DNA from: Elusimicrobia bacterium RIFCSPLOWO2_02_FULL_39_32 | GTDB taxonomy: Bacteria; Elusimicrobiota; Elusimicrobia; 2-02-FULL-39-32 | Reading direction: 5' to 3' | Assembly: GCA_001800135.1 (NCBI GenBank) | Contig: MGUU01000005.1 | Span: forward strand, 1-64,000 | Length of the DNA: 64,000 nt | Shown: in pieces, positions 4,752 to 53,525 of the stretch | Position numbering within the stretch: the stretch's first letter is position 1 | Layout: every line of letters starts with the position of its first letter | The notes under the pieces: generated by a model | What the model saw: the letters and a program-made list of their open reading frames with translations, nothing else | Database searches by the model: none | What the model was told of the DNA's origin: nothing | Position numbers and translations under genes: made by a program

Positions 4752-4819
4752 TATAATTATATACTTCTGTCGAAAAATACGCCTTACAAAACAATCAATT
4801 CCGAACAAGTTACATTTGG

Positions 4820-4903
4820 TGCCCGGAGAGGGAGTCGAACCCACACATCCCAAAGGATATGAGATTTTGAGTCTCACGCGTCTGCCAGTTCCGCCATCCG
4901 GGC
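4820..4903 (-). tRNA. tRNA-Leu (anticodon CAA)
   Basis: Read on the minus strand: acceptor GCCCGGA/TCCGGGC, the same D-arm as the neighbour (TGGCGGAACTGGCAGACGC), anticodon stem TGAGA/TCTCA with loop CTCAAAA (anticodon CAA), a long variable arm, T-arm with GTTCGAC and discriminator A. No CCA is encoded. Its 3' end points to the integrase side, which makes it a plausible attachment site. Confidence 0.95.
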
Positions 4904-8859: not shown

Positions 8860-8934
8860 ACTATATCTTGTCTAAAAGAGAACCAAAAGCACTATTCTAA
8901 ATTTAATTTCAAAAACTTTTTTCCTCTTCAATCA

Positions 8935-23747: not shown

Positions 23748-23756
23748 TTGAGCTTA

Positions 23757-26700
23757 ATGCGTACGCGCGTGTACTTAAATTTTGCTCTTATCAATTTAAA
23801 GAAAATGGGGATTAAAGCGTGTTTTATCCAGCTCTTAATCCTAACTTTTCTTTTTTCTGTAATCGCTCCTCCATTTGCCGAAGCCAGTCTTTATGGTGAA
23901 AGAAGGCGAACTATTTGGCAAGAACGGAAAGCCTCTGTAGAAAAAATAAAGGAGGATCAACTTAAAAATTTAAATAAAAATAAGCCCGAAGCTCTTCTCT
24001 TAGCGCAGATTCCTTCAAACTTTAATTCTTTACCTTTGCCTCAGAAAAATATTTCTTCCTCTCTTATCCAATCTTTAAAGCAAGAACTTCCAAAAGAATC
24101 GTTAGAGCCGCTAGCAACTCTGCTTGAATCTGTGCCTTCTCAATATGGAACAATTAGTAAAATCCAGATTCCAAAAAATAAAAAGATTGCAAAAACTGTT
24201 CTCTATATTCAAGATGTGCACTTAAACCCAGAAGTTCAAACCAATATAAGTAAAACCATACAATCGCTGATTGACTCTAAAAAAATAAATCTGATTGCCT
24301 TAGAAGGCGCTTTCGAGGAGATTGATCTAACCCATTTTCGCACTTCTCCTTATCCAGAAGCTATCCAAAAATCAACAGATTATCTTTTTAGACAGAAAAA
24401 AATTTCAGGCGCAATCCATACAGCTCTTACCAGCCCAAAAGAGATTCCGCCTATTGTAGGAATAGATGACCATGACCACTACTGGGCACATGTAAATTCT
24501 TACAAACAATCTGTTGGACTTGTTGCCCAATATAAAAAAGAGTTAACAGATTTAAAATTAAAAATAAATCAGGAAAAAGAGAAAGGTTGGAACCAAAAAT
24601 TAAAGGATTTTGATCAGCAAGTAGATCTCTACCAGAAAGGAACCATAAAGTTAGGAGACTATCTCTCTTTACTTAGCAGCCAAAATAGTCAGAATTACCC
24701 ATCCATTCAAAACTTCCTTAAAGCTTTAAAATTAGAGAATAGTTTAAACTTTAGCCAAGTAGCAAAGGAAAGAGAATTTTTAGTAAAAAATTTAGTTCCG
24801 CTTCTAACCAATCAACAAATCCAAGAGTTCATGCAGCAGACTCTTCATTATCGTACAGGAGAGATCGGGCATTCAGACTATTACCAAGTTCTTAAAAATC
24901 TTTGTTTGAACCATGGGATTGAACTCTCTCAATATCCTGCGCTCACAGAATATCTGCGCTATGTATTACTCTCTGATTCTATTCAGTCTGAAAATCTCTT
25001 TACCGAAATCAAAGAGTTAGAAAAAAGGAATTATGATTCCTTAACTAAAAATGATGAGGAAAAAAGATTAGTAAAAAAGTCTAGGAGACTTTATCTTACA
25101 GAAAAACTCCTAAATTTTACCCTAACCAAGGAGGAGTGGGAAGATTATGAGGAGCTTAAATTTATGTCTGCCAACCCCATAACCCCAAACCCAAACTTAT
25201 CCTCTCTCACCTCTTTTGAATCTTTTTACAAAGAAGGTCTTGCTAGGGATCAGCTTATGGCAAAAAATCTAATCCGTACACTACAAAATGATACTCCACT
25301 TCCACAGTCGTTTGAATCCCTTAGCGTATTAGTCACTGGCGGGTTTCACTCTACAGGGATCGCTCAGCTCCTGAATAAAGCGGGTTTTGCAGTCATCACA
25401 TTCACCCCTAAACTTACCCAAGTTGATACGAAAAATGGCGCTGCTTATTTGAGTGTGTTCACTCAAGAAAAAACCCCTCTGGAAAAACTTTTCTCTGGAG
25501 AAAAACTTTCAGTGCCTCCTCCCACCTATCCTAAAAAAGTTCTACCGCCTCTTATCGCTGCGATTGCAGCTGGATTCTTGGTGATTGTATCTCCTCAGAT
25601 GACATCTGCAGCTCAAGCGAACAGCGCGTTTTATTCCATTCTAGGTCCAGAAAGAGAACAGGGAACAAAAATTGAGCAGGTCAAACGCATCCCTCCAAAT
25701 AAATCTGAACTATTGTTTAAAAAGCCTGAAAGAGCTGTAAGACTTACCACGATCATAGATGAGAATAAAAGTATCACAAATGCTGAAGAGGAAATAATTA
25801 AAAATGCTAAGGAAGATTGGTTAAAACAATTTTTACTGCAAGTAAGAAGGTGGATAAATAAAAGGTTAGAAAAACTTTCAACAATCTATAAAGCAGCACT
25901 AATAAAAATAACGGGAATCATTAAGAACAGACCTGAAGAATTAAGAATTCTTCAGGTCTTCATTAAGAATGGGATGATTGCTTTTTCTTTTTTTTCTGGT
26001 ACATTTCCCATTCAAATAGCGCAAGGGTTCCTAAAACAAATGCGAACAAAATCCACACGGTTATCATATCAGTTTTCCTCCTCTCCATTATTATTAGGAC
26101 ATACAGCCACACCTATGACAAAAAAAATTAATCCAACAGTGATTGTAAGAAATTTGATCCAGTTCTTTAATGTTAAAGAAATCGTGAAAGAAAAAATTAG
26201 AGCCATCCTCACAATAGATAAAATTGTTGTATTTTGGGCGGTATCGCTTACAACTGCGGCAGGAGCTCCATTCATTGTTAACGAGAATTATGGCGCTGCG
26301 GTGGCGATTATCACGGGCGGGTTGCTTGTAGTTCTGAAGTTGACGATTGGAAAGAATTTATTGAATAGCCGAATGCCGGCGTTCGCGGGCGGCGTTCATT
26401 CACCCTTAAATTTTAAGGATGATCTATCTGCAATGTTTTCAGGGAAAGCTGGGGATGATAGTCCAGACTCGATCTTTAGTGAACGGGAACGAATGGCCAA
26501 AAAGTTACAGAGCCTAATGAACGGCATAGAAAAGGTTTCTCTCATAGTTGATTTATCGCATGGGTTAGGAGATGAACTAATCTTTTTCTTTAGTTTTGGT
26601 CCCGCTATTAGGGCAAAATATCCACATGTCAAGATAAATGTTTACACTCGCAGGCCGTGGTTATGGCATGCCCAGCCAGGGATAGAGATTATCGGCCGAT

Positions 26701-29700
26701 CCTACCCATCAGAAGAGGAAAAAGATTTATGGAAAGAGAAAGGAACTCTTGTCATTTTCGGGAGCCCTCTCACATCAAACTACCGTTATGAATTCAAGAG
26801 GAGGGATGTAACTGTAACAAGCGATAAAGATTTTGCGTTCGCCCAAAACGCTCTTAAAAACCACTATGCATGGAGAATATTTTTTGAAAATGCCCTTGGA
26901 ATCGCTACCGATAGAAAGCTGGATGCTGGATACCTCATCAACAAAGAATCTTCCTTATTTCGGGAAGCAGAAGCTTTTGTGGAAAAGCATTCTCCGGATC
27001 CTACAAAACCCAGAATACTATTTAATGGTATGGGAGGTGAGTTTAAAAGAAAAGGGTTCGAAAGTGCTGAGCTGCTAGCTGAATTTATCTCTTCATTGGT
27101 TGAAAAAACTAATGGCTATGTTTTTGTTGTTCTCAATGACAGAACCAATCAAGAGTTGTTAGATAATTTGAGAGATCATCTTAAATCCAATTTACGTTTA
27201 AAAGCAGGACAGGCAGTTCTTCTTCCGCCTACACTAGAGGATAAATACCTTTCCAAGCATGTAGCTGCCCTTGTAGATATGGGGGTTACCGTTGAAGGCG
27301 GGATGATGCATTTGCTTTATGCTTTAGGGAAACCATTTGTTTCGCTTCATAATTTACCTCAACCTTTTACCTTCGGTATTTATGGCTATTATCCAGTTTC
27401 CGGCAGTGTGGAGGCTTATTTCCCGCTTGAGTACGATAAACGTACGCAAGCGCCAATTGAATTAGAAAAATCTTTTGGCTATCTGCCCGGAGAAAATGAT
27501 GAAATGAACCAAATTCTTGGCAAGGTTCAAGACATTCTTTCCATCGTACGTCAAGGTGTTCTCAAACAGCCCGACGCGATAGAGGTTGGGGATAAATCTT
27601 TCAAAAATCCTCCCACTAAACAATCAGGATTTACAACCACAGAAGCGGTTGGTTTTGCGACGATATTGATGGTTTTTGCCGCGTTGGTTCCTGTGGTGTT
27701 ATGTACGGTTAATTTTCCTTTCTATGTTTTAGGCAGCGGGATTTTATTGATTGGCCTTAAAGTATTTTTAGCAAGATTAAGCATGCACAGGAAGATTTAC
27801 GTTCACATGATCCAATTCCTTCATGGGAACTCTCTGGCTAACGTCCAAAATCTCAATCCCGAAAAGTTTTCCATTCTTGCCAATATCTACCAAAATTCCA
27901 TCTTTCAATTTAAGAGTCTCTTTAACCTTTCCAGTTTGAAATTGAATATACAACGCATCCGCATTTTGATCAAATTTTATATCCATAATTTATTCCTAAA
28001 TCTACCATCCGAACCACTAAATGTCAAGGAATGGCAAAAATCCACTCGCAACCTTTCACTCATCTTCAAATGGATTCTTAGGGTACCTAAGTTTGTCATT
28101 GCGCATCCAATGATGATTGCTTTCTTAATGCTAGGAGTTCATTGGATTATCCAAAACTTAAGTGGTGGTGAGCATACGGTGCAAATGTTGGGAACTGCAA
28201 TGCCATTTGTAGGAGGTCTCCTGCCGCAGCCAAGAGGGAAGAACCATTTATTCGCTGTAAAGGATTGGGATGAAGAAAGAAAAGCTGACTTTGTGAACCT
28301 GCTATTCTATAACTCAAATATTAAAAGAAGAATTGAAGAAGGATTAAAAGAAGGTGATTTTATAACCCTTAAAGATATTGGAGTTCATGCGATCCGCAAT
28401 CATGTGGCCGATATCAGCGATAGAGACATTAAACGGTGGATCGAAGAATGTAATCGTCGAGCAATTCAATCCTTTCGTGAGGGAAAAGAATCAGGTTCAA
28501 GTTGGATCGTCACGGCAGGTGAGATATTGGTTGCTGCCATTGAACATAGAGCAAAAGCGATAGAGGGCGCATTGGTCACAGCCATTTATTGGCAAGCATT
28601 AAATTATAATGAACCCCGACTTGCTGGAAAAATTGCGATTGCAGAACTCAAAAAAGGGATGAATGGTTCCAGCATTCATCGTTTGGAGACAGCGGTTAAT
28701 CATGCCTTTGGCAGGCATGCCCCAAAAGCAATTCGCACAATTGTTAAGCTTGCCATTGAAAATGATCTCCTTGATCTCAAAGTTAGGAAAATAAAGCAAT
28801 GGATACGAGCTCTTCAAAAATATCGGCATTATCTTGAAGCAGCGGAAATTGCAGTTGCACTAAGATCAAAGAAAAAAAGAAGCATCGAAGATACTAGAAT
28901 TAAAGAACTATTTGATCAATCCCTCAAGAAGGGACCTCACTTTTATAAGGATTCAGGACAAATCTTAAAACTGATGATGGAAAATGATGTCCATGGTATA
29001 AACGCAAATGATGTAAATAATTTTATTCTCTCTTCTTTTTTGGCTAGAGAATATTTCATAGCGGCTGAGGTCGCGATCTCTGCAATGCAACATGGTTTTG
29101 CAGAAAAATTTAGTGTTGATGTCATTAAAGATTCAGTTCAGCGACTGCAAGCAGAAGGCGGCAAGATATATGCCAGGGAGATAGTCCTAAAGGCGATAGA
29201 GGCTGGGATTGAAGAAACTGGTTTTAGTCTGCGAAGTCTCAAAGGGAGTATTGATGATGATTTGGATTATGGCAGAGATATAGATAATGCATGGCAAAGG
29301 GTTGTTGATCTTTTAAGGATGAAAAGAAAACTAGAAGGAGTGGATATCAATGATGCACACCGTTGGTTTGACGGATTTTTGGATGAAACATCTGTATATT
29401 CGGAGTCTATTGCACTCGGCGCAATAGAAAATAATATTGAGGGATTAAAACCAAATGATATTAAGATATGGATTGCCAAGTTAATTGCGCGTGGAAGATT
29501 AAGTGAGGCAGCAAGGATTGCTGCAGTTGCCTATCCGCTGATTTTTTCTTCTCAGAATAACAATCAGCTTATACCCACGATCCAAAATTCCTTCCGATTG
29601 CTCAGCCGATATCACTTATTGCCCATCAGCCAATTTCCAGAGATCATAAAAATGATAATTGCTTCCGGTCCTGAAGAATTTAACAAAAAGATACAGGAAC

Positions 29701-32700
29701 TGGAAAACCTTAAATCTGCGTTTAAAGAGGCAAATAAGAAACTGCCGAGGACGAGGCGCCATAACCAAAAAAAGTTTGAAGAAGAATATTCCGCCTCTCT
29801 TTATGCCTTAGAGATTTTGTTACCAGGCTCCCTCCGCCATTTAAAAGGTCTTTTGCACCAAAGTTCAAACCCTCAGGGTTCAATACGTTTTCTGGAATCA
29901 AAGAAAGAGGCTCTCCTAAATGAGCCTGTTTTCCAGTCACTAAAAAAATTAATTGATGAGTTGAATAGTCAAAAGGAGGGATCGAGGAAAAAAATCTCCA
30001 TAGATCAAAGCGCGATCTTCAAAATTATAGATATTGCCAATAGTTACGTGAACACAGGCAAAAAAAATGAATTTATCAATCAAATGAATGGGTACAGCAA
30101 GGATACCCCAATATCCGATCTAATCAAAGAACTGTCAAAAGGACTCCTAACCCCCCTTGCGGAATCTTTTGGCATAGATAAAGTAACGATTAGTCCCGAA
30201 GCGTATAAGAAAATATATTTTCCTTTTCTTAGCCGTCTTAATCAAGCAAAAAATAACATTGAGCATTCATCCCCGCATCGTTTCCCTGCATTTAAAGGAT
30301 TAATTAAAGCAATCCTTGAAGATCGGTTTTGGGGCTACATTGAAGATGAAAACCAAAATGACGCAACCGGCAGAAAAATTGCAAATCACAATAAAAATGT
30401 GAGGGGTCTTCTGGAAAAAACCGGAATCAATGTCTCAAGATGGTTAGGCAAAACTCCTCAAGAAAGGCAAGAGTCGGGTGAGATATTTTATGTTCCAAGC
30501 GGCATTACAAAACATGATCCCGTATCAGAGATTGAGAGTGTAATTGACTACCTACAAAGGACTCTTAAGTTAGGGTTACAAATAGAACACAGACAAGGGA
30601 TGGAAGCATTTCTTCAAGAGTCGGGGTTATCTGTAGAAAATAAAAAAGAACTTGTGCTTCAATTATCAAAACCCACTACCTTAACAAAGCTATTGCAGCT
30701 AACTCATCGCATTCTTTCCTTTGAAGAGGTTCAAGGGAATATTTTATATTACGAAACAGTTAATCACTTTAAAGAGCGTGTGGATGTTCTTAAAGCGCGT
30801 CTCAGCGCTACCGAATATCGCCAAGCATTAAGCCAAGGGAAACACTTCACGGTCCGACCTATTTTTAGAAATCCAGGGAATGACCTTTTTATGGGAGACT
30901 TTACAAGCTGCTGTCTAGCAATGAACTCCAGTCTATATCCCCATGCTATGGTCGAGCGACTAATTGATGAGGGGATGAATGTTATTGAGGTCGTGGACGA
31001 CTTAACTGGTAAACCGATAGCAAACCTCTGGCTTTATATTGCGGAAGATGGGAGTTTAGTAATCCAGAATATGGAAATTAACTCTGAATATGAAAAGCAG
31101 AGTCAACATCTGACGTTTGCAATCGGTCAAGGGATGATTAACTATGCGGCCGAATTCGCAAAACAGTTTAGAGCTAAAAGATTGTTGATTGGTCAGGTAG
31201 AACATGGAAAATATTTTACCAACGGCTTTGTGCGGAAAAGGTATGGAGAGCGAGTTGTACCCTTTGAATTAGGCAAGATAGGCGGCAGTTATGATGGTAA
31301 AAAATATTATCTCGATTCTGAACAAAAAGAGTCCGCTTACTTAGTGGAAGATTTTAGATCTGTATCCTCACCGAGTCTAAAACGTTCAATCCGCAAAACA
31401 GTAGTTTCCATTCCCAAAGGAAAATATTTCAAACAAGCGGGAATGTCGAATATAGAAACTGCAGGTCTAGGCATGGCTTTGATTTGGGTTGCTCTGGGGT
31501 TAGTTGCAGCAATGTTAGCCGGCGGGGCGAGTTTGATCGCAGTTCTCCTTGTTGCAGGCGGGCTAGTGACCGCATTCATCTCACTAAAAAATAGAAGTTC
31601 AAAAAAAATATCTTTGGCGAATCGTGGTTTAGAAATTTACGTTGATGGGATGGTCAATCATCTTTTGAATAGTAAAACTCCAGAATTCATGGCATCTAAC
31701 TATATTGCTGGTTTTATAAAAATCAGCGATGTGGATGAAAGTTTTGACTATGGCGACAGCTTGATTGGAAAAATTGAACAAGCCAAAACTCACTTAAAGA
31801 TAGCTACTGAAGATCCACTTGCCAGAAAACGAGTTGAAATTGCGTTAGAACTATTAGCTAAACACCCGCTTGCAAAAGAGCTGTCCGTTTTACAGTTTGA
31901 AGGTATTGCCAATGGGTTGGTCAAACATTTTAGCGGAAATGATCATGCCTACAAACCTTATAAAGAAAATTTGGATCATGCAGTAGAAAAACTGTATGAA
32001 CCAATGCGTCAAGAAGTTTTAAAACTCGTTCAAAAGCCTGAAGAGAAAGGGCTTACTGAAGAAAGAATAGAAGCTTTGCGGATGGCGATGGTCTCGGCAG
32101 GCATTATGAATTTGTTTGACCATACCCGCATGCAGCCGTTAGAAGATTTTGCAAACTCTTTAGGAATTGTCTTTGATTGGAAAGATCCCAACAGTTTCAA
32201 TCGCTTAGAACCTGTGATCAAAGAAATGGTCCTAAAAACCAAAGTTCAAGGACCCATTGTAGATGAGTTTGAACAATTCATCGCTACTCTTAGAAAAAAT
32301 CCTCAAGGAAGAATAATCTATTTTTTAGATAATCATGGGGAAGCTATCTTTGACCAGCTACCAATTGAACAACTCTTGCTTGCTGGATATAGCGTAACAG
32401 TTGTTGCCCGAGGCGAAGTGGTTCGAGATGACATAACCGAAGAAGAAGCAAGGGAAATGATAAAGAGGAACCCGGTCCTTGCTCCCTACCTAGAAAACAA
32501 ATCATTGTTAGTAACAACAGATGGCAGCTTTCTATTAGGAGCTGACCTGTCTCAAAGCTCTCAACATCCCGAATTCTTGGAAGCATGGGGCGAAGCAATC
32601 GCTTATATTGCGAAGGGCGCTGGAAATTTCCATACGCTTTACACTCAAAATTTATCCATTCCCGGATTCCATATCCTGATGTCTAAAAAAATTGGAACTG

Positions 32701-35700
32701 TGATTAAAAAATTAAATGAGGTTAAGGGAACGGACATCTCATTTAATACAAACCGTCTTATATTCGCTTATCAAAAAGTCCAGTATCCTCTACATTTAGC
32801 CTCAACGGATCAACCAGCGGATGATGATATTAGACATCAACCCGGGCAGAAACCAATCGGGAATTTTGAGGATGTGAAAGAATTGTGGGGCAAGATCGTT
32901 GATTTATATGGGAAGGAAAATTTAACTCATCTTGTGGCAGTGAAAACAGATGATATTTTAAGTAAGCCTATTGAAAAACAGTATGCATTTGGCGCTCCGC
33001 ATACCATACGTTTGGGAGAGGCATGCAGAATAGAAAGAGGGGATGCCTCGGGGTATCCCAACCCTCCGGAAAAACAGGAGATTCACTTACAGCTTAGAAT
33101 GGTTCAGAAAAGATACGAAGGAATAAAAATAAATTTTCAATTGTATATTGATGCTCTGCCCAATGGGGTTAAAGTTGCGAAAGTTGGAGTTACACAAATT
33201 CCTGAACACGAAACCAGACCTGTGTCGGGAAAAAGCTCTTTGCATTTAGCGCTAGAGTACGCGAAAAAAATGATTGGAATCGGAAAAAATTCCGAAGCCG
33301 CCTCCACACTTTCAGAACTTCTCTTAGATTTTTCCGGTTATTTGGTTAAGCTTGGAGGGACTGGGGACATGCAAAGAGATTTCGTGCCCAAGTGGGACGA
33401 GCGCTTTGGGGTACTAAGCCGCGTTCCCATACCAGATCTTCGCGATATTCTTGAGGAAGCCGGGGCGCTTTTAAAGTCCATTGAAAAAAAACAAAGTTTA
33501 AAAAAATTCATTGTTTCCGTTTATGCGCGGCACGTTATGCAGATGATGATGAAAAAGTTAAGCACTGAGGAACTGCAGACCGTAATTGATGCTTACTTTG
33601 ATTCCTCTGGACTTTACATGGGGGAATCCATGATGCTGATTTTTGAAGAAATGAGAGCGGACTATTCAGTACGTTTATTTGAAACGTTAGAAAAATCAAT
33701 GTCAAAAAAATCAGACCGGCCAGACCAATTCGTGTCCCCCCACAGCCATTATCGAGAAAAATATAAGGAGCTGGCAAATCGCTATCCAGAAATCCCCTTC
33801 TTTCCTTATCATGTGAACCTTCCGCTCAATTTGAAATGGGAAGATTTTGAATTTAAATTAGCGACTTTCATTCGACTGGGCGGCGGGGTTAGACTGTTGA
33901 TGGAAGCTAAGGAAATAAAAGAGTTGGGCGGGGCAATGCCGGATGCTGAAAAGACCAATGAAGAACTGAAACAGGAATTAAAACAGTTGGGGCTTGAATT
34001 TTTGGCAAGAGAATTTATAGACCCCGATGAAGAAAATATGAACTTTTACAATAGTTTTAAAGCAGAAAGGAAAATTTTTGAACCTTTAGAAGAAAAAGGA
34101 GAAATTTCAATTGGGGAAGCGAGGTATGAATGGGCCGCGGAAGGAGGGATTCAATGGAAAGGAGGGCGTTTATCCAGCAGGGTAAGCCAAGAAAGAGAAT
34201 TTCTTAAAATTCTAGGATTGCAATATACGGATATTGAGATTGCCGATGCTCTGGCGCGATATGCGGAAACCCTTCAGCAAAAACAAGCAGATTCAAAATC
34301 TTTACCCGGAGATGGTGTCGTGGAAGCCCATATTCTTCAAATAGTGATTGATTATATAAAAGAGCTGGATTTGCACTATCCCAATGAGGAAACTTGGGAG
34401 ATTATTGCTTTTCAGATGCACTCCTATGAATTCTGGCTGAATTATATAAGAGCCATTTATCGGAACAAAAACATGGATATTTCCGAACACGCGCTTTATA
34501 AGACAGCAGCGCTAGCATTGCTGTATGTTTTAGAAGCAGAACATAAAATAAATACTTTTACGAATGAAATCAAGCTCAATTCACTTGTAGATAGATTTAA
34601 GGGTGGAGATCAATTAGAAGAGGGCAGCGATCCTAGTTCGTTTGTAAAAGCATTTTTGGGCGGAGATGAGCTAAAATCCATCTTCCAGTGGAACCGAAAA
34701 GCGTATCAGGAATTGATGTTGTTATCGCTTCGTAATGACCCAAATTTAAGAACAGTTTATGATCGCTTATTCTCGGCAAAAGCATTTTCCCCAGATAGAA
34801 AAATTATTTTCAAACAGATTCTGGATAAATTAGAAAGTAACGAAGGTCCAATAGGTGACCAACCCGGGGCCATTGGGATTTGGCCGTTTAAAAATTTGGT
34901 TTTGATTGGATTTGTGGAAGGGGTGATTATCGTTGGGTTTTCACTTTTAACATTGATGGGGTTCATGCCGCACGCCCCTCCTGTATTTTTAGAAAATATA
35001 GATATCTTTTCTCTTGGTCTCTTTGTTGCCGCACTTCTAGTATGGTATCCCCTCTTAGTCCGCCTCCATTATTATTTTGGTATTCGTCAATTGAACGGAA
35101 AAATTTTAATTTCTAGGACAATTTTTGAAAAAAGAAAAAATTGGCTTATCTTTAGAATCAAACCATCTGCTGAAGAGCACTTTCATATAGTTGAAGATGA
35201 GAATGAATACCTAAACAATGCAAAAAAAGCTGCAAGCACAGCGCTCTTTAGTTTAATACCTATACTTATTTTTCCATTCGCCCTACAAAGTTTACCTGGA
35301 GTCAATCCCTATTTTATGACTGCGGTTGGAGCTATCCTTGGTGGAATCTTCCATGCCGCTCGGAACTCCCCTGCGCTGCATAGCGTAAAACTGGATACGG
35401 ATATAGACCGCATTGTTCAAGAAGAAATCGTCCATATTTTTAATGTAACTGGGGCTCCAGAACTTAAAAAGAAAATCAAACTGGTTATTATGAAAAACGT
35501 CTTTGATCCAATAATTTTATTATTTTTTGCAGATAGGATTCTTTCTGTTAGGATTCCTCCTTACATAGCTCTTTTAGCCATGGCGCTATATTCAGGGTTC
35601 CCTGTAAATCTCGCGCTTCCCCTTGCTCGTATTTTAATCTTTATTGCAGTCATTCAAGGACTATTTGAGACTTTACATTGGATAAAAAATTTTTATGGGA

Positions 35701-38700: not shown

Positions 38701-41700
38701 ATGAGCGTTATACAAAATTTCAAAATAAAGGAATCAGTTCCGAAATGTTTAAACTCAGAGCCGAGTTTCATATTTACGTGGATGAAGTTGAAAAAATTGC
38801 AAAAATAGTTTTGGTTGATCCGGATGATTCAGAATCTAATCTCCCCCCTTCTGGCCCAAAACCTACAAATCAATCTGGTTTTACTTTGCTTGAAGGTGTA
38901 CTAATCGGCTTATCGCTGTTTGGGTTAGGAACCATTGCTTACTCCATTTACCATGGATGGAGTTGGGGCGGGATTATTTTAAGCGCTCTTGCGGTTTTGC
39001 CGGTTGGAGGTATTCTTTTAGGTAAGTTTTATGATTTGTTTATGAAATCACTTGAAGGCGATGCTTTGGAAGGATATTTTTCTGTAATAAAAGGCAAAAA
39101 AAATACTCTGAATGATAGGGATAGGAAAGGAGAAATTAAATTCCAAAATGTAGGAGCCGACACTTTTTACATTATTGGTTCACGATTATACTACTTAGCC
39201 CAAAACTTCGAAGAGGCGAATCAATCTGGCGGATTCTTTGATGAATTGAAACTTTCTTCGCGAGACCGCGCTATTGTATTGAAACTGTATTATGATGAAC
39301 AAGGTTTGCCATTAAGCGATAAAACACGGGTGCATGACATTATGATGGCATTCCAGAATATATGGCGTTCAGGGAACAGAAATTTTAAGGTTCTTTCAGC
39401 AGAAGCTGTAATTCGTTTAATTGCAGAATATGTTCCAGAGATTAAAATTAACGACGCCGAAAAATCAGAGGGCGCCAAAAATACAAAAAAACTTGGGGAC
39501 GCTAAAGCTACAAAACCAGGCATTGCTCCTTTTTTAAGATCTGTAACTTCCAGACTATACAGAAAAGGAAATATCGAAATCCAAACAGAAATTGATCCTA
39601 TTGAACCATTGCCCCGCCAGTTTGATGATAATCCATTGCGTTCTGATATTCTAGAGGATGATAAGAAAACTGATAGAGACAATGGTCTCGCATCCACCAA
39701 AGATGAGTGGGCGATAGAAAAATGGGGAGAGGATTCGTGGCAGTATTATCTCTACACAACTGTAGGAGTGAACTTGGAGGTGGTGTATCAACTGCCAGTA
39801 CTTTTGGCGGTGTGGTTTAATTTAGATGTGCCTGTGGTAGTGGCAGTAACGGTCGCTTCGGCTTTTGTGTTTAGCGGCGCGCACAAAGGGAGGGGAGTTA
39901 CATATAGGGAATGGTTTGGCTCAGATAAAGGAAAGAAATTATTTTTCTGGGGCTTAGTTCTTGCAGGAGTTTTGGTCACTCCTGCATTTTTATTTTCTGT
40001 AGGGTTGGGAACCGCTGCAACTGGCTTAGGATATTATTGTTTGACTCACACTTCCCACAACGGCGCGATTCTTTTGGCAAGGAGGTATGTAAACAAAAAG
40101 TTAGACATAAGTAATCTGCGTCTGGATAGACTATTCTCTCCTAAATTCCTGCCGCAGGTAGTTGAGCTATTCCAAGATAGAAATTTGCATTGGCTTGAAT
40201 TGAGCTGGTTTTTCAGGCTTGCCTTTTGGCTTTCCCAATCTCCCCTTGCCTCGGTTGAGGAAAAAGGTGAACTATCCTTTATTGAAAAACTTAAAAAAGT
40301 AAATCTTCTTTATAGTATTCCAGAAATGTCAGCTTTATCGAATGTGCCCAAATCTACTCTGGGGAATATTTTATTAAATGGAGCCATCCCGACTCCTAAA
40401 AATTTAGAAAAGCTTCAGGGTCTTGTAAGTGAGATTGAACAAAAATACGATTTGCGCTTATTGCCCGATCGAAAGACTATGTTCGCAACACTAAAGGCTG
40501 TTGCAGAAAAGAACGGCAGAGACGTTACTGCGCGCGAATCCGGCATCCCTTACAACGCTATTTGGCAAATACTTAACGGTGATTTTCAGATGAGTCCTCG
40601 TGTGTATCGGCAATTTTATGATTTTATGATTGCCAGAGTGAACGATCGCTTTGAAATTCAATTAGAGTCTGATTTGTCCCCTAAATTGAGCGCGGATGCA
40701 ATTCTAGAAAAATTGGGGGTTGATTTAAGCGATCCCATAGACTCAGAAAGTAAACTGAGAAATATGTCTAAAGTATTTGAGAATCTTCTAAAGGATAAAG
40801 AAACGAATAAACACGCAATTGTAAAGTTGTTATCTATGATTACCAGGGATGGAAAACAATTCTTTCAAGGGTATTCAATAGAATCAATTTTGTCTTTGTC
40901 CGCAGCCAAGTTTATGAGCAAGTTCGAGATTTTGCTTTACCTTTACTCCTATAAAGATAACGGGGATTTTATTTTCAATGGAGGGGCTATTAGCGGAATC
41001 TTGCGCACCACTCGAACTTTAGAGGATATAAAAAATTTTATATTGCTTCTAAATAGAAAAGAAATTCGGAACGGGAATCACATTGCTCAAATTTTAAAAA
41101 GCAGTAAAAGTTTGGTTGATGCAGAACAATTTATTAATTATCTGCAAATTTTAGGTATAAAAAGCAGCGGTGATATTAGCGGGATCATCCATTCCAAAAG
41201 GAAGTTGAGAGAAGTAATCGAATTTATAAACCATCTTCGCGGCATAGGAATCCAATCTCCCCAACACCTTAGTCATATCATTGGGAGCAGTAAGAGCTTA
41301 GAGGATGTTAGCGCATTCATCGCCTACCTTATTGGAATTGAGGTTACCGGAGAGACAACGATCTGCACAATTGTGCGCAGCTCTCTTCGTTTGGACCAGG
41401 CGCAAATGTTAAGAACAAATATTGACAAGATCGGGCTGGATGGAATTCGAAAAAAATATGAAAGAGAAAATCAAGGGCAATTGAATTTTTACAAAGATGT
41501 TTTTGGAGATGGTTTAGATAAGCTGCCTTTGGCAGTCCTTTATTTTTTGTTGCCGGCAGAACTTAAAATGGATAAACGATTTAGGTGGAACAAACTTTCA
41601 TTTCCTTATTCGGATGCTCAGGTTCTGGCCACAATTTCCCTGAATGAAGATAGGACAAAAATTTTGGTTGGTTCAAAGGAATATGATCTGCCGCGCTACC

Positions 41701-44700
41701 ATGGATATAGCGGAATCCAAGATTTTTTTAAACAGTTAAGGGCAGACCATCTCTTTTCATCCAAAAGAAGCGTTCCTTGGCACTACATCATTCCAATCCC
41801 TTCTGATGTCCGCATCGAGATGGGCTGGTATTATCACCCTCTTATTTTATCAATGGATTCCCATGTTCGCGGAGAAGATCCTGGTTATACGGGTCATGAC
41901 ATTTTAGGCGATGAAGACGATTTAGAAACTAAAATAATTCTTAATCAAATCAAGGAGATTCTTGGGTCAGAGGGTTATGAAAAATTTTTATCATTAACAG
42001 AGAATACAAATCGGTCCACCAACGAAAAATCTGAATACAAAAAAATGCTCAAACAGGTTCAAAAAAGGATGGGATTAGAGAGTGAATCAGGAAGCATAGA
42101 CCCTGAACAAGATTTGGATACGGATGATGAGGAAATTGAAGAAACAGAAAATGGGAATACTCCCGCCTCCATTCTTGGAGCAAAGTGGGCGCATCTAGCG
42201 GGTGAGTTAGAATGGGCATTTTCAGTTCCATTCTTAATCATGGGCGCTAAGACCATTCTGCGGTGGGAAGCGGATCGGCTGATTGGTGAAGGAAAAGCAG
42301 ATACAAGTTTGTTGGATGATCTGGATAAACTAGAACCCATGGGTGCGGTTTCTTGGTTCACTGGAGCATTTGGTTCTATATCTTTAACTGCATGGATGGT
42401 CTATTCCATGATTTCCGGTGTGTGGTGGGATGGTGGAATAGCAGTTGGAATCTGGCTTTTAGCAAGTGGGATTGTATTTTCGCGAGAACATCCAAAATAT
42501 AAAAAAGATGGAAAGAAGCTTAACTATTTTGACAGAGCCATCCTAACAATAGTAGGAGCAATATTCGCCGCAGTAACTGTATCTCCAGCTGTTGTGTTCT
42601 CTATAGCGATCTCTATTCTTGGAATCCCTTTACTTTTGGCAGTCGTTGCTGGAATATTGTTTATTGAACCTTTCCGAAAACTAGCGCTTACCTATTTTGA
42701 GTTGGGGATCAAGGGAAGCATAAAACTACACAATTTTTATAATAACCGCATCTCACCCAAACTGGGTCTTATCCCTGCTTCGGTTTTACCTACCGGCGAT
42801 GAAGACGATACGGATCAAAAGTTCGATCAGTATCTAGCCCAAAATAATCTATCTGAATATAAAGCTCTCAAACAATCCTTTTCATCTGAAATTAAAAAAG
42901 CATTGTTAGAAGATTCTGCTTTAAAGCCGGTATTCTTGGTGCACGAACCGCCAGCTGAAATTATGAAGATAGAAAAGTATATGGGGCCGATTGAAGTTTT
43001 GCGCGAGAACGCTGTGGCGCAGATCGGAGGCGAGGAAATTCTGCACCGGACAAGCGGCTACTTCGCAGGCAGCGCCGAGGTGGCAAATTTAATGGCAGAA
43101 AATGGATACGTTATTGTTGCTGGAATGACAGACAAAGGGTATCCCGGGGAAAAAGATATTGCGAATGGTCGGCAATGCTACTTTCCTTCAGAAGATGGAA
43201 CATGGTTGTCTTTGAAAGGAAGCGGGAATTTTAGTCACGAAGATAAACCGTACGAATTTTATCCGGAGCATGGGAGCTATCGAGGGGTTGTTATTGGTAA
43301 AGAGCTGGGTTTTGCAGAAAAAGGAACTGCCGCAGTTGCCAAAGCAGGCGCTGGGAATTTGTTCCCTCTATTGCTTGCTGTAAGGCAACTGTACGCTCTA
43401 CCTGATGGCAAAGGGAATCTGGTAAAAATAGATTCTATTGAAGAGATTAAAGCGAACGGAATCACCCCGCGTCTTCTATTCAATCGGTTTATTACGCCGC
43501 ACCGCTTTTCAAAACTTGCTCAGCTGCTTCAAACAGACCCCGGTTTGCATAAACTTAAGGCAAGAATTTCCAGTACACTCGTGAACCTTGGCGAGGAACC
43601 TATTCGTTCGTCAGAAGAACTTTTGACTAGAGCGATGTATAAACTAGGCAAATTTGAAGCCTTCAAGCAGAATGCCGGATGGTTTAAAAAAACCCTGCAC
43701 GATCAGGATTTTACATTGGCGGGCGAAGAGGCGGACAACGAGGAATTTATTTCCGCAAAGGACTATATTGAGCGTTACTTAGAAGACCCATTTGAGAACG
43801 CAACTTATATGAGTGAAAACAAAAATCTTTTAGTGGATCATGGATTAAGTTTTTCGGGCTTGCACTCAAAAATTGCCGCTTGCGGATATGCGGCCAAACA
43901 TTTAATCAATCTCTATTTTGATGACACCCCAAAAGTGACTTTACCAGAGTTTTTGCTCTCACTGTTTTCTGGATACTTCGATCAGTTGGATGATAAATAC
44001 CTTGATTTATGGGTAGAACAATCGAAGATGGGAGAAAATGGGGACTTGTTTAAACTTCTTCAAATGACGGTTTCTGACAGCGTTAAACAAAGTAACAGCG
44101 CCGCTGATTCGAACGAGCTGGTTCAATCTATTTTTGCCTTAGCCATAGAAAAAGTGAGAGAGAAAACCGTCGCAGTCCTAGTTAAACAACTTAAAACGAT
44201 TGGGGATAAGGAAAAAAAAGATAAAAAAGAAGAGAAAAAGGAGATCAAAACTCACATAAGCGAAATATTGTTATTTGTTCAAAAACACAGAGAAGAAATA
44301 GAAAAAGACAAAAACTGGGGGCGGGAATGGATATTGGGCAAAATCAAAATTATAGAAGAATTAATACAAAACACTGTATCAAAGTACGATATTGATAATA
44401 AGAGAAAAACTAAAAATGAAATCACCCAACTAAAGATCTTTTGGCAATCAAAATACTGGCTGGCAAATAATGAGGTGACATTGGAAAGAGTTTGTTCTTT
44501 AGATAGTTTGATGGATCAAATTATTTCTGACTCTCTCAGCGTAGGGAATAAATATAAAGCAGAAAAAACGAATCTGTCAAAAGAGATGGAAGAAAGCCTT
44601 GCTGCCTTGTTTCAAATTGTAAAAGTGGATTTGGCAAACTCTAAAATTAGAGATCCAGCGGTTTTCGGAAGCACAGCAGAAGCTGCTGCCAAAGCTCGTA

Positions 44701-47700
44701 TTGAAATGTTTTATCGTCTAAATAAAGAGACACGGAAATTTCTCTTATCAGCTTTAGGAAGTCCCTATGTTCTCTTTTTTGGAGGGAAGTCGCAGCTCAT
44801 TGCTAAAGTTATTAAAAGCATTGATTTGCTTTATCGGGACATGGGGCGCTTTTCTGCAATGATTAAAGACTGGGTTCTGAATATTGCCTCAAATTTTGAA
44901 ACATTAAATGAAGTAGCGTGGGATAGAGATAAGAAGGTGTCGCACGATTTCGATTCCTCCGCCTCTATCACAGATGCGCTGCGTTTATATCAAAATCTGC
45001 TTGACAATAACCCTATCTTATCCTTGCCATTTGTGGGACATGCAATGGCAATAAAAAATGTTGTCAATCCTGATAACCATTTACAGGTTGGTCTCTATGG
45101 CGGCGCAGGGGCAGATATTTCTTCCTTTTTATTGGCAACGAATATAACTCAAGCCTATTTTGTTGAACAATATAAAGTAGATGCTCGTAAATTGCTTCAT
45201 CTAATAGATAATCATTGGGAATTTCTCTCATTTCTTTTATCAAAAGATGAGTATGCTCGTCAGAAAAAATTTTATAGTTTTGGAGCGCATATGGATATTC
45301 ATCAAAGTTCAATGGTCGTGGATGGAATAGAAATTGATCTCAATGTGCGGATTGTGCAGGAATTGATTGCAATGAAAATTGATAAAAAAACTATTTTTAT
45401 AAGCGAAGAAAATGGGAATACAAAAATCAGTTTTGAATGGAAATATCCGGGAACTCAAGAGACAAAAATCTACAACATTACCTATATTCAAGAAGATATA
45501 AAAACGATTGGACAACAAAAATTTGAAAAGCAAAATCCTTTCTTAGATCGCCTGCTTAAAGAGGGAATTGACCTTTATTACCAGCGCGCTCCCTCAACAA
45601 TTCCAAAATTTTACGAACAATTTATGGGGAGGATAGGATCATCTTTAAAACCAGGGGGCTTTGCTATTACGGATGATTTTATGGAGTTGGTTCTGAATAA
45701 TCCCACCCAATATTTAGAGTCAGAAGGCTCTATGTTTGGCCCTCCGATTTATTCCTACATGATGCGCTGGTGGGAATCCTTAATCCCTTTTAGTCCAGAC
45801 ACTTGGCCTTATGGCTGGTATCTTTCGATCCGACAAAAGATAAGAGTAGCTACAAGCTCTGAAGAGACCTTAGGAGCTGTGATGGTTTGGGCTTGGAAGC
45901 TGATCTTATTTTTGAGCCAATGGGCGCATTCAAGACTTAATTTTGTCCCGCTTCTTAAAAAAGAAAAATATAGTCTTGCAATGTATCGTAAAACTACAGC
46001 CTGGTGGTTAGAAAATATAATCTCACTTGTTGCTAGCGGATTCTCAACTGGGCTGCCGGTTTATCTTTTAACTGGAGAGCTCCACTTGGCAGCGGCTGCT
46101 ACCTTTAATTTTGTCTGGCCCATCTTTACACTCCTACATTTCCCTAATTTTATCGGCTCTTATGGATCACGAGATCCGCCTTTGCTCTATTTTGCAGCTG
46201 CGGGATTTTTAAGTTTTACAGGACTAGTCTTTGGATTTTCACCCTTTGATATTCAAGGGATAGTTTTCCACCTACTTATCAATTTTTCTCTTCCTTTCAT
46301 TACAGATTTTTCATTAAAAGTCCGATTCAAAAAAGTTTTAGAGGATAATTATGAGATTGGAAAAGTTAGAAAAATAGAACTCATTGGGAAAGGCACATAT
46401 ACAACCGCATATCAAGTTATAACTGACCATTCAAAATTTATTCTCCGATTAAATCAAGATAAGAAACCAGCAATTCTCTTTGAAACTCAATTAAGAAATA
46501 TTGCTGAACCAAATAGCCAAATTCCAAATTTTATTTTAACTAGAAATAGGAATAGCTCTGTTCAGTTTAGAAAACAAACCTTAACTCTTACCACTTTCCT
46601 TGATGGGATACGTGTCTCATGGAACGAAATTAATAATAATAGACTAAAAAATGCAGCATTACGATTGGCTGAATTCCACAAAATGTTCAAAGGCGCTATT
46701 GATTCATTCTCTATTGATCCACGCCGATTTGATTCTATTCCTGTCATTGATCTTGCAAATCTCGATCAAAGAGATCAGAGCGCAGAAAAAAAATTCGAAC
46801 GATTTTATGATTCACTGCCGTCCATTCTGCCAGTTGCAAGCTACTTCCACAATCATTATGAATTCTATATCGCTCAAATCAGGAAACTGAAAGAGAACAC
46901 TGCTGGAAAAATTGAACATCTTCCTCAAACAGTTTTTCACGGAGATTTCGCTGCATGCAATTTACTTTTCAAGGGAGATGATGTAAACGCGGTAATAGAT
47001 TTTGGCAACTCCAATATAGGCCCTCGAATTCTTGATTTTGCTAATCCCATTGTGCAGCAAGATGGCCAGTTAGATTGGCAGCGCTTTAAAGAATTTATCT
47101 CTGTCTATCAGTCGGTTGCAGAGGAACCATTGACTAGAGAGGAATTGGAACTTCTTCCTGAAATGTTTCGCCGCCAAATCTTACAGCAGATATTGTCTCT
47201 ATCTACTGTTATAAGGAATGGAAAAATTCGTAACTGGATCAATATGAAACGATGTCTGGTAAGCAATACTGAATTGCTCAAAAAATTAGAAACTCTTCCA
47301 TGGAATGAGCTAATGGCGGAAATCACAAATTTAAGTCCTACAATTCAGAATATCTCCTCTGCTAGAACCGATAAGGATAAGGCAAAAATTGGCAATCCTT
47401 CAGCCTCCATCCTTGGCGCAAAGTGGGCGAAGGTGGCAGGGATGCTTGAATGGGCGCTTGCTGTGCCAGCGCTGGCGTTAGCTGGAAAAGTAATCATTAA
47501 AGGAATGGCATGGGTTTTGGTGAAGGCGGGGCTGGCGGATGAGGAATTGCTAAAAGATGTGAGGGACGAATCCAAACTAAAACCAATGGATGCGTTTTCT
47601 AAGCTATTAATTATAGCGGGTTCGGTTTCAATGATTTTCTGGTTCGCATCAGCGATGATCTCAGGAATTTGGTGGCACGCGTATGTTTCGATAGGGATAT

Positions 47701-50700
47701 GGATGTTCTTTAGCGGGATTGTTTTCTCCAGAGAACATCCAGAAGTTCAAGAAGATGGGAAGGTATTAACCTATTTTGATCGCCTTATTTTGTTTGTTGT
47801 AGGCGCACTCTTAGCAGGAGTTACAGTGACTCCTGCTATTTTTGTTTTGATGGGAAGCCCGATTGCAAATTTGGAGGGTGTGACGCACTTATTGCAGGCG
47901 GCTGGACTTGGGTTAGTTCTAAATATTCTGCTGCATAAAACTTACAATGACACTATTCTTGCTGCGAGATGGTATGTAAATAAAGTCGAATCTGGTTTTG
48001 ATGCTAGATCGCCCCGAGAACTAATGCCAATTATGGCTGCGGCGGCCCTTGGTGTTTCTTCCTCACACGGTATTGTTCCCACTCAAATAAACCAAGAATT
48101 ACCAAGGCTAAGATCGAAAGAGTTATTACGGCTGTCATTTTATTCCTCCTCTGGGCAAATGAGAACACCCAATACAAAAAAGAGAATCCCAAGTATTATC
48201 ACACCAATCTTCAAAATCTTAGGAAGCTCTCTAAACACATCAGCTATTAAAAACGAAGAAAGCGCAACCGCTGACAGATTCATTGCCCATGATGATATTA
48301 GCTTTCTACGTCCTCTAGTGAAAAAACTCTCTAGCATGCCACTGATTATAACAGATACCCTGCTAAACCTCAACGCCGCTCTTTTTTACCATCTCATGCT
48401 TTGGATTTCAAAACTTCCTCTAGCTACCATTCCCCAGCTTAAACCAGAGGATGAAGATGCAAAAAAAATCGTTGAACTTGAAATAACAAGATTGAGATTT
48501 GAAAAAGCCCATCTGCTTTATCCTTTAAGTTACTTTTCTGATCGTTTGGGTATTAGCATTACTCAGATTCACCGCTTTTTGCATCGCCAAAGAAGCCTTA
48601 GTAAAGAAAAGTATGCTGAACTTATAATCCTGCTCGCAGAACTGGATAAGAGATATGATCTCAATTCCCTCCCTGACCATCCAACCCTTCTTGCAAAACT
48701 AAAGAAAACTGTGCTTGTTTATACTCATGCGGAAATCGCAAAAAGAAGCGGAATTGAAAGCGAGGGAACTATTTCCTTAATTCTTTCTGAAGCCCAAGGA
48801 TTTGGGCATGAAACTTACCGCAAGTTAGTTCCTTTTATAAGAGAAGTGGAACAACAATATCATCTGGATTCTTTACCGTATCACGAAATTATGATCGCAT
48901 TGCTTATAAAGGTTGTTAAAAATTATTCTTTAGGGATAGTTGCCAAGGAATCAAAAGTGAACAAATCAACGATTGCTAAACTTGTGTCTGGCGAGCACAA
49001 AGGCATGATCCAAAAAACATATCTCAAACTACTCTCATTTTTTGAACGAGTGAATGACCATTCTGAAATTGTTTCTCTACTACAAAACCAAAGGCAGCAG
49101 CATCCCCGAGCCTTAGATCATAAGTTTAATCAATATCTTATCCAAAACGATTTATCGCAATACAGCACACTAAAAACATCCTTTACTCCTGAAATAAAAA
49201 AAGTATTGCTGGAAAATCCAACCTTGCGTCCAGTATTTTTAGTATCCCTATCAGAAGAAAAAAAACAGGTGGGTCAACTAGAAGTTGTGGATCAAAAAGT
49301 ATTAGATCAGGTTGGCAAGGACGAACACCTTTCCAAATATCCGGACTTATTGAATAATGACTTCGATGATATGCGCGAAAAAATTTTGGAACGAGCCGGT
49401 GAAGATTTACTGGATGAATATACAGGATTTTTAGCTGGCTCTTTAGAGGTCGCAAATCGCATGGCGTTAGAGGGTCACAAAATGATCATAGGAGTTACAG
49501 ATCGGCCATACAATAATAATATGGGAATGGATTTCAATGTTGCCAATGGAAGACAAGTTTATTTCCCTTTAAAGGATGGAACCTGGCTGGGAGTAAAAGG
49601 AATAGGACAATTGATTGAAGAGGATCATGTTCCCTATGACCCGATGCATCATCGAGGCGTTCAATTTGGACTTGTGATTAAGATTGAAGTGGATCAAGCA
49701 GTAAAAGGATATTTAAAAATTAAAGAAAGCAGCGGAAGGTTTGCGCAGTTCTTAGGTTACAGGAGGCTTTATTCTGTGCCAAATGGTCATGGCGGTTTTA
49801 TAAGCACCTCAAAATTAAAAGACAGCGATGAAGAACTAATCCAACCTGTTTTGGTTTTTAACCGAGTTTTAACCCCGCATCGTTTAGGTAAACTTAATCA
49901 ATTACTGCAATCAGATCCAGAACTTCTAAATTTTAGAACCAGAGCTTCTAAAATTGCGGCAGCTGGTTTTACTCCGCCAAATAGAATTCTATCCAGCTCT
50001 GAATTCATGAATATGATTTTCTCTGAACTAGGCCGTTCTGAAGCGGTTAAACAGAATCATGGTTTATTTAAACAAACAATACACATACAAGATTTCACAT
50101 TATTTGGCGAAGAATCGGACAATGAGGAATTTTTCAACAAAGAAGAATATTTATCCTATTTAAATATTGACGGATGGGGTGGCAGAGAGAGTTTTTCTCT
50201 TTTTACAGAACAGGGGATCGGGGTTCAAGGAATAGAAAATAAGATGGTGGCCCTTGGCCGAATATTGACAAGATTAGAACCTACGGATTTAAAAATTTTA
50301 TTTCCTTCCCCTTCTCAAACTCTGGAAGTACTGTTCCAAAGTTACTTCAGTAATTTAGAAGAACCCTATTTAAAAGTTTGGGCAGAAAAACTCCCCAAAT
50401 CAAAAAGAGATTCTGTTCATCCCGCAGGATGGATACTGGATATTTCTAAACGAGGACTTGCTCTAATTCTAGCATTCAAAGAAATTGCGCCGCAGGATGA
50501 TTTTCTTTCAAACCCAACACAGTTAAGAGATAAAATCATTTATAAAATAATCGGTTGGGCTAGAGCAGAAGTTAAAGAGAGACGAAAAACCAATAAAATC
50601 ATAAATCGGTTGCTGAAGCGTTATACCAAAGCATCTCTTCCCCCTGCTTCTATCGCGGCAGATCCGGAAAATTATAAGGTTGGACCAAGCTGGTACAAAG

Positions 50701-53525: not shown

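What the first reader, a model, noticed from the sequence alone, without database searches (positions are those of the whole stretch)
23757..53525. A 9.9-thousand-residue protein carrying many intact enzyme motifs
Seen: one open frame joins a signal peptide with EreA/ChaN-like, GT9-like, DUF89-like, HEXXH, SelO-like, methyltransferase-like and APH-like domains and many membrane hairpins. Catalytic signatures (HELTH, HGD...N plus IDFG, GLGD, DNHGE) are preserved, unlike in a structural adhesin. Known: Omnitrophota encode giant proteins of unclear role. Inference: an assembly-line or modification scaffold in the envelope, or a polyprotein cut by its own HEXXH protease.
Basis: partly seen in the sequence, partly recalled or inferred. 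Interest (0 to 1): 0.85.

Follow-up and report, generated by a model that had tools for sequence, protein, structure and literature searches.

The report
Exported giant modular multi-enzyme protein
This groundwater bacterium encodes a 9,925-residue protein of many enzyme-like domains that begins with a secretion signal and a hydrolase-like domain, and whose near-absence of cysteine suggests its enzymes sit outside the cell's interior; it belongs to an apparently undescribed family of such giants shared by Elusimicrobiota, Omnitrophota and Auribacterota.

Summary
The frame is real: 23748-53525 (+), 9,925 aa, no stop. A 10,906-aa orthologue sits at the same place in a sister species, and every aligned block is under purifying selection (dN/dS 0.17-0.59). 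The host is Elusimicrobiota, not Omnitrophota. Two results go further. (1) Signal peptide plus header is a family-wide N-terminal unit: 80 of 80 closed frames, at least 15 in this genome, 61/294 genomes of its phylum and 105/193 in an Omnitrophota-type phylum, in front of frames up to 35,113 aa. (2) The payload is purged of cysteine (0.17% against 1.49% in cytosolic neighbours), as exported proteins are; a sibling giant's only payload cysteine is the catalytic one of a GAPDH-like domain. So the modules probably lie outside the cytoplasm and some catalysis is selected. Modules are gained and lost in frame; the sister protein lacks the HEXXH block, with a crossover at boundary repeats, so self-cutting by it is not general. 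Assembly line: unsupported. What the giants act on is unknown; no protein-level data exist.

The parts
23748..53525 (+). Giant open frame, 9,925 aa (TTG 23748; ATG 23757)
   Evidence: orthologue of 10,906 aa in the same gene neighbourhood; dN/dS 0.295
23748..23888 (+). N-terminal signal peptide (KK...FIQLLILTFLFSVIAPPFAEA)
   Evidence: hydropathy peak aa 22-40; a signal-like segment precedes the header in most relatives
24069..25562 (+). Header: Ere/TIKI/ChaN-superfamily hydrolase-like domain (aa 108-605), with a long helical insertion
   Evidence: AF2 model pLDDT 86; the eight best VIA rows are EreC, BcR135, RRSP, HopBA1, Z up to 8.4; IQDxH, E(+28), R and GGxH invariant in 67 sequences
25539..25595 (+). 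Hydrophobic segment after the header (aa 598-616); its end resembles a second signal peptide
   Evidence: not conserved family-wide
26535..27527 (+). GT9-like domain (GLGDE ... MMHLLYALGKP), absent in the orthologue
   Evidence: Pfam GT9 E 0.067; block aa 810-1421 missing in G001
27627..27704 (+). Internal type IV prepilin-like motif KQSG/FTTTEA plus hydrophobic helix (aa 1294)
30345..31457 (+). Most conserved block (aa 2200-2570, 94% identity), fold unidentified
31440..31556 (+). Prepilin-like motif KQAG/MSNIETAG plus helix (aa 2565), conserved in the orthologue
31773..32657 (+). DUF89/ARMT1-like phosphatase domain 1 (LDNHGE, KGAGN)
   Evidence: Pfam PF01937 E 2e-16; PDB 2g8l E 2e-8
34860..35108 (+). 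Boundary repeat copy 1: QPGAIGIW plus TM pair
   Evidence: self-match to aa 4536-4632; crossover point in the orthologue
35109..37331 (+). Membrane/zincin-like module with HELTH at 35781-35795; absent in the orthologue
37353..37643 (+). Boundary repeat copy 2: QPGAMGIW plus TM
38877..38936 (+). Prepilin-like motif NQSG/FTLLEGVLIGL (aa 5044); the orthologue has KRRG/FTIVEVVV
40104..40727 (+). Helix-turn-helix-like region 1
   Evidence: HTH_3 E 0.0024, below cut-off; similar to aa 8208-8441
42156..42752 (+). ASILGAKW TM module 1
   Evidence: 45% identical to module 2
42795..44042 (+). SelO-like domain 1; replaced after about 150 aa by another DUF89 unit in the orthologue
   Evidence: Foldseek SelO/YdiU probability 1.00, VIA Z 17.6 over 287 residues
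44970..45857 (+). Class I methyltransferase-like domain 1 (GLYGGAGAD)
   Evidence: VIA Z about 10 to many SAM methyltransferases; giant-specific family
46374..47042 (+). APH-type kinase (HGDFAACN ... IDFG)
   Evidence: Pfam PF01636 E 2e-14
47391..47957 (+). ASILGAKW TM module 2
48369..49070 (+). Helix-turn-helix-like region 2
49116..50390 (+). SelO-like domain 2
   Evidence: 38% identical to copy 1
50775..51521 (+). DUF89/ARMT1-like domain 2 (MDN, GTD, KGEGN)
   Evidence: Pfam PF01937 E 1e-27
52035..52856 (+). Methyltransferase-like domain 2
   Evidence: 44% identical to copy 1

Best explanation
The protein is an exported, envelope-attached multi-enzyme megaprotein and a member of a header-defined family. 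A signal peptide sends it through the Sec route (inferred). The N-terminal Ere/TIKI-type domain, with an invariant His/Glu/Arg/His set, acts as a hydrolase outside the cytoplasm (fold and residues shown, activity inferred). The downstream chain is a string of swappable modules (SelO, SAM-methyltransferase, DUF89 phosphatase, APH kinase, in some forms GT9-like and zincin-like), held at the membrane by short hydrophobic hairpins. These modules are purged of cysteine as exported proteins are, so they probably work in the periplasm or on the cell surface, on material from outside such as that of prey, hosts or dead cells (location supported, target inferred). Modules are gained, lost and copied in frame by recombination between boundary repeats (shown for one block against the sister species).
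For: Header: Ere/TIKI folds fill the top eight VIA rows; the H51 to E79 spacing is 28 residues, as in BcR135 and RRSP (PMC6254334), and R393 and GGxH427 are invariant in 67 sequences. The header is always N-terminal: 80/80 closed frames, median 111 aa from the frame start. Cysteine: payload 16/9306 (0.17%) against 1.49% in 14 cytosolic proteins of the window, Fisher 5e-22; other residues are near 1 except Trp (1.7) and Tyr (1.3); across the family payload median 0.24%, signal-peptide-like ORFs 0.36%, cytosolic-like 0.98%. In sibling giants G000:C8 and G001:C43 the only payload Cys is the catalytic one of a GAPDH-like domain (SCTTGA), while the stand-alone GAPDH has 5. Purifying selection in all blocks. 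In-frame module exchange with a crossover inside QPGAxGIW.
Against: SelO, APH and methyltransferase folds normally need ATP or SAM, which the periplasm is not expected to supply. The charge test of hairpin topology gave no signal, so sidedness rests on the signal peptide and cysteine content. Low cysteine may also reflect membrane association (the H+-pyrophosphatase has 0.53%, a permease 0.00). The SelO motif apparently has Phe in place of the metal-binding Asn (motif matching only), so that domain may be inactive. dN/dS (0.295) is higher than in neighbouring genes (0.03-0.22). No expression or protein data.
Confidence: 0.5

Rival explanations
1. Interbacterial or trans-kingdom effector: the payload is delivered into another cell, where ATP, SAM and NAD are available, and the header and hairpins are delivery or processing parts, much as in large polymorphic effectors.
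For: Common N-terminal part plus fast-changing payload; cofactor-requiring enzymes in an exported chain; giants in related phyla have been proposed as predation proteins (PMC10066038; PMC12419801).
Against: No known delivery apparatus or toxin domain was identified in this protein; module content looks metabolic; many giants carry membrane segments; the lifestyle of this species is unknown.
Confidence: 0.2
2. Polyprotein: the chain is cut into separate enzymes, by the zincin-like module, by the header, or by prepilin peptidase at the three internal GF/M[TS]xxE sites.
For: HExxH enriched in family payloads, 29 seen against 3.6 expected; prepilin-like motif plus helix 3 times here and twice in the orthologue, 6 forward (one a duplicate record of the orthologue) against 0 reversed over 104 proteins; prepilin peptidase gene present at G000:C10.
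Against: The orthologue has no HExxH at all; the prepilin-like motif is found only in this locus, not in other family members; homologues of SelO and MT units never occur alone.
Confidence: 0.12
3. Mostly neutral accretion: recombination keeps fusing and shuffling pieces of genes behind a functional header, and the payload is largely non-functional.
For: Broken SelO unit fused to a DUF89 unit in the orthologue; rearranged enolase and TIM in relatives; higher dN/dS than neighbours.
Against: All 24 blocks have dN/dS 0.17-0.59; catalytic motifs conserved; the catalytic GAPDH cysteine is kept while all other payload cysteines are lost, in two species.
Confidence: 0.1
4. Cytoplasm-facing inner-membrane scaffold: only the header is outside; the kinase, methyltransferase, HTH and SelO modules face the cytoplasm.
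For: The modules belong to families that normally use cytoplasmic cofactors; a hydrophobic segment follows the header here.
Against: Cysteine purge of the payload to the level of the header; 22 of 74 relatives have no TM segment after the header, so header and payload should be on one side there.
Confidence: 0.08

Closest known systems
Giant ORFs of Omnitrophota (Ca. Velamenicoccus archaeovorus 39,678-aa protein; Seymour et al. 2023, PMC10066038)
   Same: Frames over 20 kb in small-genome bacteria, many TM segments, few annotated domains; the header found here heads frames up to 35,113 aa in the phylum of an Omnitrophota record.
   Different: The published accounts that could be read stress adhesins, polysaccharide degradation and poor conservation; none describes a shared Ere/TIKI-like header, cysteine purge, or copies of housekeeping enzymes.
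Huge proteins of Elusimicrobiota (PMC11573180)
   Same: Same phylum, reported as enriched in proteins over 5,000 aa.
   Different: Those proteins were left without functional assignment in that study.
Omnitrophota giants with enzyme, peptidase and methylase domains (lipocone paper, PMC12419801)
   Same: Giant proteins combining enzymes, peptidases, methylases and TM segments; predation role proposed.
   Different: Singled out by a lipocone domain, not by an N-terminal header; nothing on cysteine or glycolytic-enzyme copies in the passages read.
Ere/TIKI/ChaN superfamily hydrolases
   Same: Fold, His/Glu spacing, Arg and second His of the header.
   Different: First Glu of the 2His/2Glu set is an invariant Asp; large helical insertion (model residues about 133-393); always the N-terminal unit of a longer chain or a header-only protein.
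SelO/YdiU pseudokinases
   Same: Fold over 287 aligned residues (Z 17.6).
   Different: Exported context, two copies inside one chain, no match in Pfam; Phe at the apparent metal-binding Asn.

Membership tests
[quoted passage not shown]
   Top eight VIA rows EreC, BcR135, RRSP, HopBA1 (Z 6.3-8.4, 156-205 residues). Z is middling and Foldseek alone is weak; the residue pattern supports it.
Ere/TIKI/ChaN superfamily (header) | Catalytic His-Glu pair, conserved Arg and second His | tested here: met
   H51, E79 (spacing 28 as in BcR135 H85/E113 and RRSP H3902/E3930), R393, H427 invariant in 67 sequences.
Ere/TIKI/ChaN superfamily (header) | First Glu of the 2His/2Glu set (ExH) of RRSP and BcR135 | tested here: not met
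   Invariant Asp (IQDxH) in its place. Described in PMC6254334 for active members, not as a condition of the superfamily (PMT lacks the whole set); so fold kinship is kept, identity of chemistry is not claimed.
Ere/TIKI/ChaN superfamily (header) | Hydrolase activity | not testable with these tools
   No assay possible.
SelO | SelO fold | tested here: met
   Foldseek probability 1.00, E 8e-5; VIA Z 17.6.
SelO | Conserved Lys, Glu, Asp, Asn, Asp active site | tested here: inconclusive
   KGxG and QDF...GExxD motifs conserved in 8 copies but Asn appears to be Phe; no residue-level structural alignment was available.
DUF89/ARMT1 | Pfam PF01937 above curated cut-off with DN, GTD/GAD, KGxGN motifs | tested here: met
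   60.3 and 97.7 bits, cut-off 25; motifs; PDB 2g8l.
APH kinases | Pfam PF01636 above cut-off, HGDxxxxN and IDFG | tested here: met
   54.1 bits, cut-off 23.2; motif kept in both species.
Class I SAM methyltransferases | Rossmann-like MT fold with glycine-rich motif I | tested here: met
   VIA Z 9-10.5 over 160-190 residues to many SAM methyltransferases; GxGAGAD motif. SAM binding not tested.
GT9 glycosyltransferases | Pfam PF01075 above cut-off | tested here: not met
   12.9 bits against 22; filed only as GT9-like.
NRPS/PKS assembly lines | Carrier, condensation, adenylation or ketosynthase domains | tested here: not met
   None in Pfam scans of the whole protein.
Self-cleaving zincin polyprotein | Protease module present in orthologues with the same modules | tested here: not met
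   HExxH absent from the 10,906-aa orthologue.
Header family of giant proteins (defined here) | Signal peptide followed by the header at the N-terminus of the frame | tested here: met
   80/80 closed frames; at least 15 frames in this genome.

The most novel reading that the evidence does not exclude
These phyla run an extracytoplasmic enzyme system: giant exported chains carry cysteine-purged, often rearranged copies of central enzymes (TIM, GAPDH, enolase, phosphofructokinase, phosphoglucomutase, PPDK, SecA-like, SelO, methyltransferases) that are catalytically active outside the cytoplasm or inside another cell, all behind one TIKI-type header, and many of the unexplained giant ORFs of Omnitrophota are members of the same family.
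Probability: 0.35. Interest if true: 0.95.

Novelty: new variant of a known kind. Interest (0 to 1): 0.82.

Why it matters
Giant bacterial ORFs have stayed unexplained because they look unrelated and unannotated. A single N-terminal domain, detectable by one profile, groups many of them across three phyla and gives a handle (a predicted active site, a defined border) for experiments. The cysteine pattern gives independent evidence on where the payload sits, and the retained catalytic GAPDH cysteine argues that enzymes normally confined to the cytoplasm are kept active in an exported chain. If that holds, it raises the question of what such cells do with glycolytic, kinase and methyltransferase chemistry outside, which can be tested by proteomics on enrichment cultures.

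Tried and rejected
Assembly line (no such modules). Self-cutting by HEXXH as the general mechanism (absent in orthologue). Topology from charge: K/R-poor short loops looked like a positive-inside signal, but D/E are equally poor there (KR share of charged residues 0.54 in both, Fisher p 0.9), so no conclusion. Prepilin-like sites as a family-wide processing code: found only in this protein and its orthologue. PDB profile searches with the header, SelO and MT alignments found no sequence relatives. Plain Foldseek on the header was weak; the call rests on VIA plus residues. 'Clean circular permutation' of TIM in G000:C8 was my first reading (notebook); BLAST against the stand-alone TIM showed partial extra copies around a central copy, so I claim only rearranged copies there; the enolase of L144 does have its C-domain before its N-domain. 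The key preprint on giant genes (West-Roberts et al. 2023, cited in PMC12057145) is not in the library, so its content could not be checked: novelty of the header means 'not found in what I could read'.

Full report
Observation. The frame 23748-53525 (+) is open over 9,925 codons. The window lies in an Elusimicrobiota genome of 2.52 Mb in 27 contigs; its closest relative held, of the same genus, is the MAG JACPBF010000001.1, titled Elusimicrobia bacterium. There the same neighbours flank a 10,906-aa frame. In 24 aligned blocks dN/dS runs from 0.17 to 0.59, overall 0.295 at dS 0.29; neighbouring genes give 0.03-0.22 at dS 0.12-0.31. The frame is therefore constrained as protein over its whole shared length, though less than housekeeping genes.

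Anatomy. After a signal peptide comes a domain (aa 108-605) that Pfam does not name. A model with pLDDT 86 from 67 homologues gives, as the eight best VIA rows, erythromycin esterase EreC, BcR135, RRSP and HopBA1, all of the Ere/TIKI superfamily. The superfamily's catalytic His-Glu pair is 28 residues apart in BcR135 and RRSP (PMC6254334); here H51 and E79 of the aligned segment are 28 apart and invariant, as are R393 and the His of GGxH. The first Glu of the 2His/2Glu set is an invariant Asp. Downstream lie DUF89 twice and an APH kinase, two SelO-like domains (Foldseek probability 1.00, VIA Z 17.6) and two methyltransferase-like domains (Z about 10) (the second copies by sequence), weak GT9 and HTH matches, one HELTH, and some sixteen clusters of hydrophobic segments. 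The units at aa 6110-7364 (TM unit, SelO, MT) recur at 7855-9703, where the APH kinase is missing and a DUF89 domain stands between SelO and MT.

Module exchange. Against the sister protein most blocks align at 73-94% identity (two short linkers at 45-57%), but the GT9 block (aa 810-1421) and the HEXXH block (aa 3788-4528) are missing there, a DUF89 unit is duplicated, and SelO 1 is cut short and continued by DUF89 sequence. At the HEXXH block the sister sequence passes from QILDKLERNEDSIG into PQPGAMGIWKTLFGIKNIAV, that is, from the left copy to the right copy of a repeated QPGAxGIW-TM segment: an in-frame crossover between repeats, either a loss there or a gain here. SelO and MT homologues were found only inside frames of 1,745 aa or more, in 3 and 5 of 294 genomes of the phylum.

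A family defined by its first domain. A profile of the header matches 61 of 294 genomes of this phylum and, with the wider alignment, 105 of 193 genomes of the phylum of L096, a record titled Omnitrophota, with frames up to 35,113 and 23,964 aa. A scan of one genome per species (84,980 species) returned 111 loci; the 80 kept carry Elusimicrobiota, Omnitrophota or Auribacterota names, except one titled only 'bacterium'. In all 80 closed frames examined the IQDxH motif lies 62-237 aa from the frame start. This genome has at least 15 such frames (16 pattern hits, 15 verified, none in the reversed control); Ca. Auribacter fodinae has about 40 matches. Header-only frames of about 520-650 aa exist too.

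Payload. Pfam finds few but telling domains behind headers: triosephosphate isomerase, enolase, phosphofructokinase, phosphoglucomutase, pyruvate phosphate dikinase, SNF2, ABC1 and protein kinases, metallophosphatases, M48, M23, S8 and transglycosylase domains. In the window's own genome another header frame (4,094 aa) carries TIM-like and GAPDH-like stretches and a further one (4,433 aa) a SecA-like ATPase; each has a normal stand-alone counterpart elsewhere. In L144 the enolase has its C-terminal domain before its N-terminal one. Motifs such as GHSEVRR and AYEP (TIM), SCTTG and TLHELTNDQ (GAPDH), GEGKS, DEVDS and GRAGRQG (SecA) are kept. The window protein itself carries none of the glycolytic domains; it is linked to those giants by its header and its cysteine pattern.

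Where the payload sits. The payload here has 16 Cys in 9,306 residues (0.17%), the header 0.18%, cytosolic neighbours 1.49% (Fisher 5e-22); other residues are close to the cytosolic set except Trp (1.7 times) and Tyr (1.3 times). Over the family: payload median 0.24% (66), signal-peptide-like soluble ORFs 0.36% (26), cytosolic-like ORFs 0.98% (145). In the GAPDH-bearing giants of both species the only payload Cys is the catalytic one, while the neighbouring Cys of CTTNC is Ala; stand-alone GAPDH, TIM and SecA have 5, 5 and 7. This is what exported enzymes under selection for activity should look like. It is not proof: membrane proteins can be poor in Cys, the signal-peptide classes are hydropathy guesses, and a charge-based topology test was uninformative. 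Twenty-two of 74 relatives have no TM segment after the header, so there the payload should share the header's side.

Processing. HExxH motifs are enriched in family payloads (29 against 3.6 expected), but the orthologue has none, so self-cutting by this module cannot be the rule. Three prepilin-like motifs followed by hydrophobic helices occur in this protein, two in the orthologue, none in other members, and a prepilin peptidase gene is present; this remains a testable but weak lead.

Judgement. Shown: frame, orthology, selection, header fold and residues, SelO/MT/DUF89/APH identity, module exchange, family spread, cysteine purge. Inferred: export of the payload, activity, and any role in dealing with other organisms. 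Published work knows the giants (PMC10066038, PMC11573180, PMC12419801) and proposes predation or adhesion; none of the passages I could read names the header or the cysteine pattern.

Noticed in passing
L186:1994-14275 (-) = G000:C8:25993-38274: 4,094-aa header protein in the same genome with TIM-like (partial extra copies around a central copy) and GAPDH-like stretches; its only payload Cys is the GAPDH catalytic one. Same in the sister species (G001:C43).
   Followed up: partly
L189:3-9296 (-) = G000:C25: Header giant (4,433 aa) containing a SecA-like ATPase with intact Walker and GRAGRQG motifs and no Cys in that stretch, beside a normal 903-aa SecA gene.
   Followed up: partly
L144 (RIFCSPLOWO2_01_FULL_54_10), ORF of 3,123 aa: Header protein with enolase in the order C-domain then N-domain, a TIM lacking its start, and an HERGH membrane-protease-like motif; the only TIM match found in that genome, which may be incomplete.
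   Followed up: partly
G356:C37:183504-184949 and G336:C88:88619-90094: Header inside frames of 35,113 and 23,964 aa in the phylum of L096; not read further.
   Followed up: no
window 3495-4682: Phage-type integrase ORF (3495-4640) overlapping a tRNA-Leu gene (4595-4682), with a second tRNA-Leu on the other strand at 4817-4903: possible integrated element or its remnant.
   Followed up: no
window 30345-31457 (aa 2200-2570): Most conserved block (94% identity) with an unusual conserved Cys-Cys pair (GDFTSCCLAMN) in an otherwise Cys-poor protein; fold unidentified.
   Followed up: partly
window 27627, 31440, 38877: Three internal type IV prepilin-like motifs before hydrophobic helices, unique to this protein and its orthologue among 104 family proteins.
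   Followed up: partly
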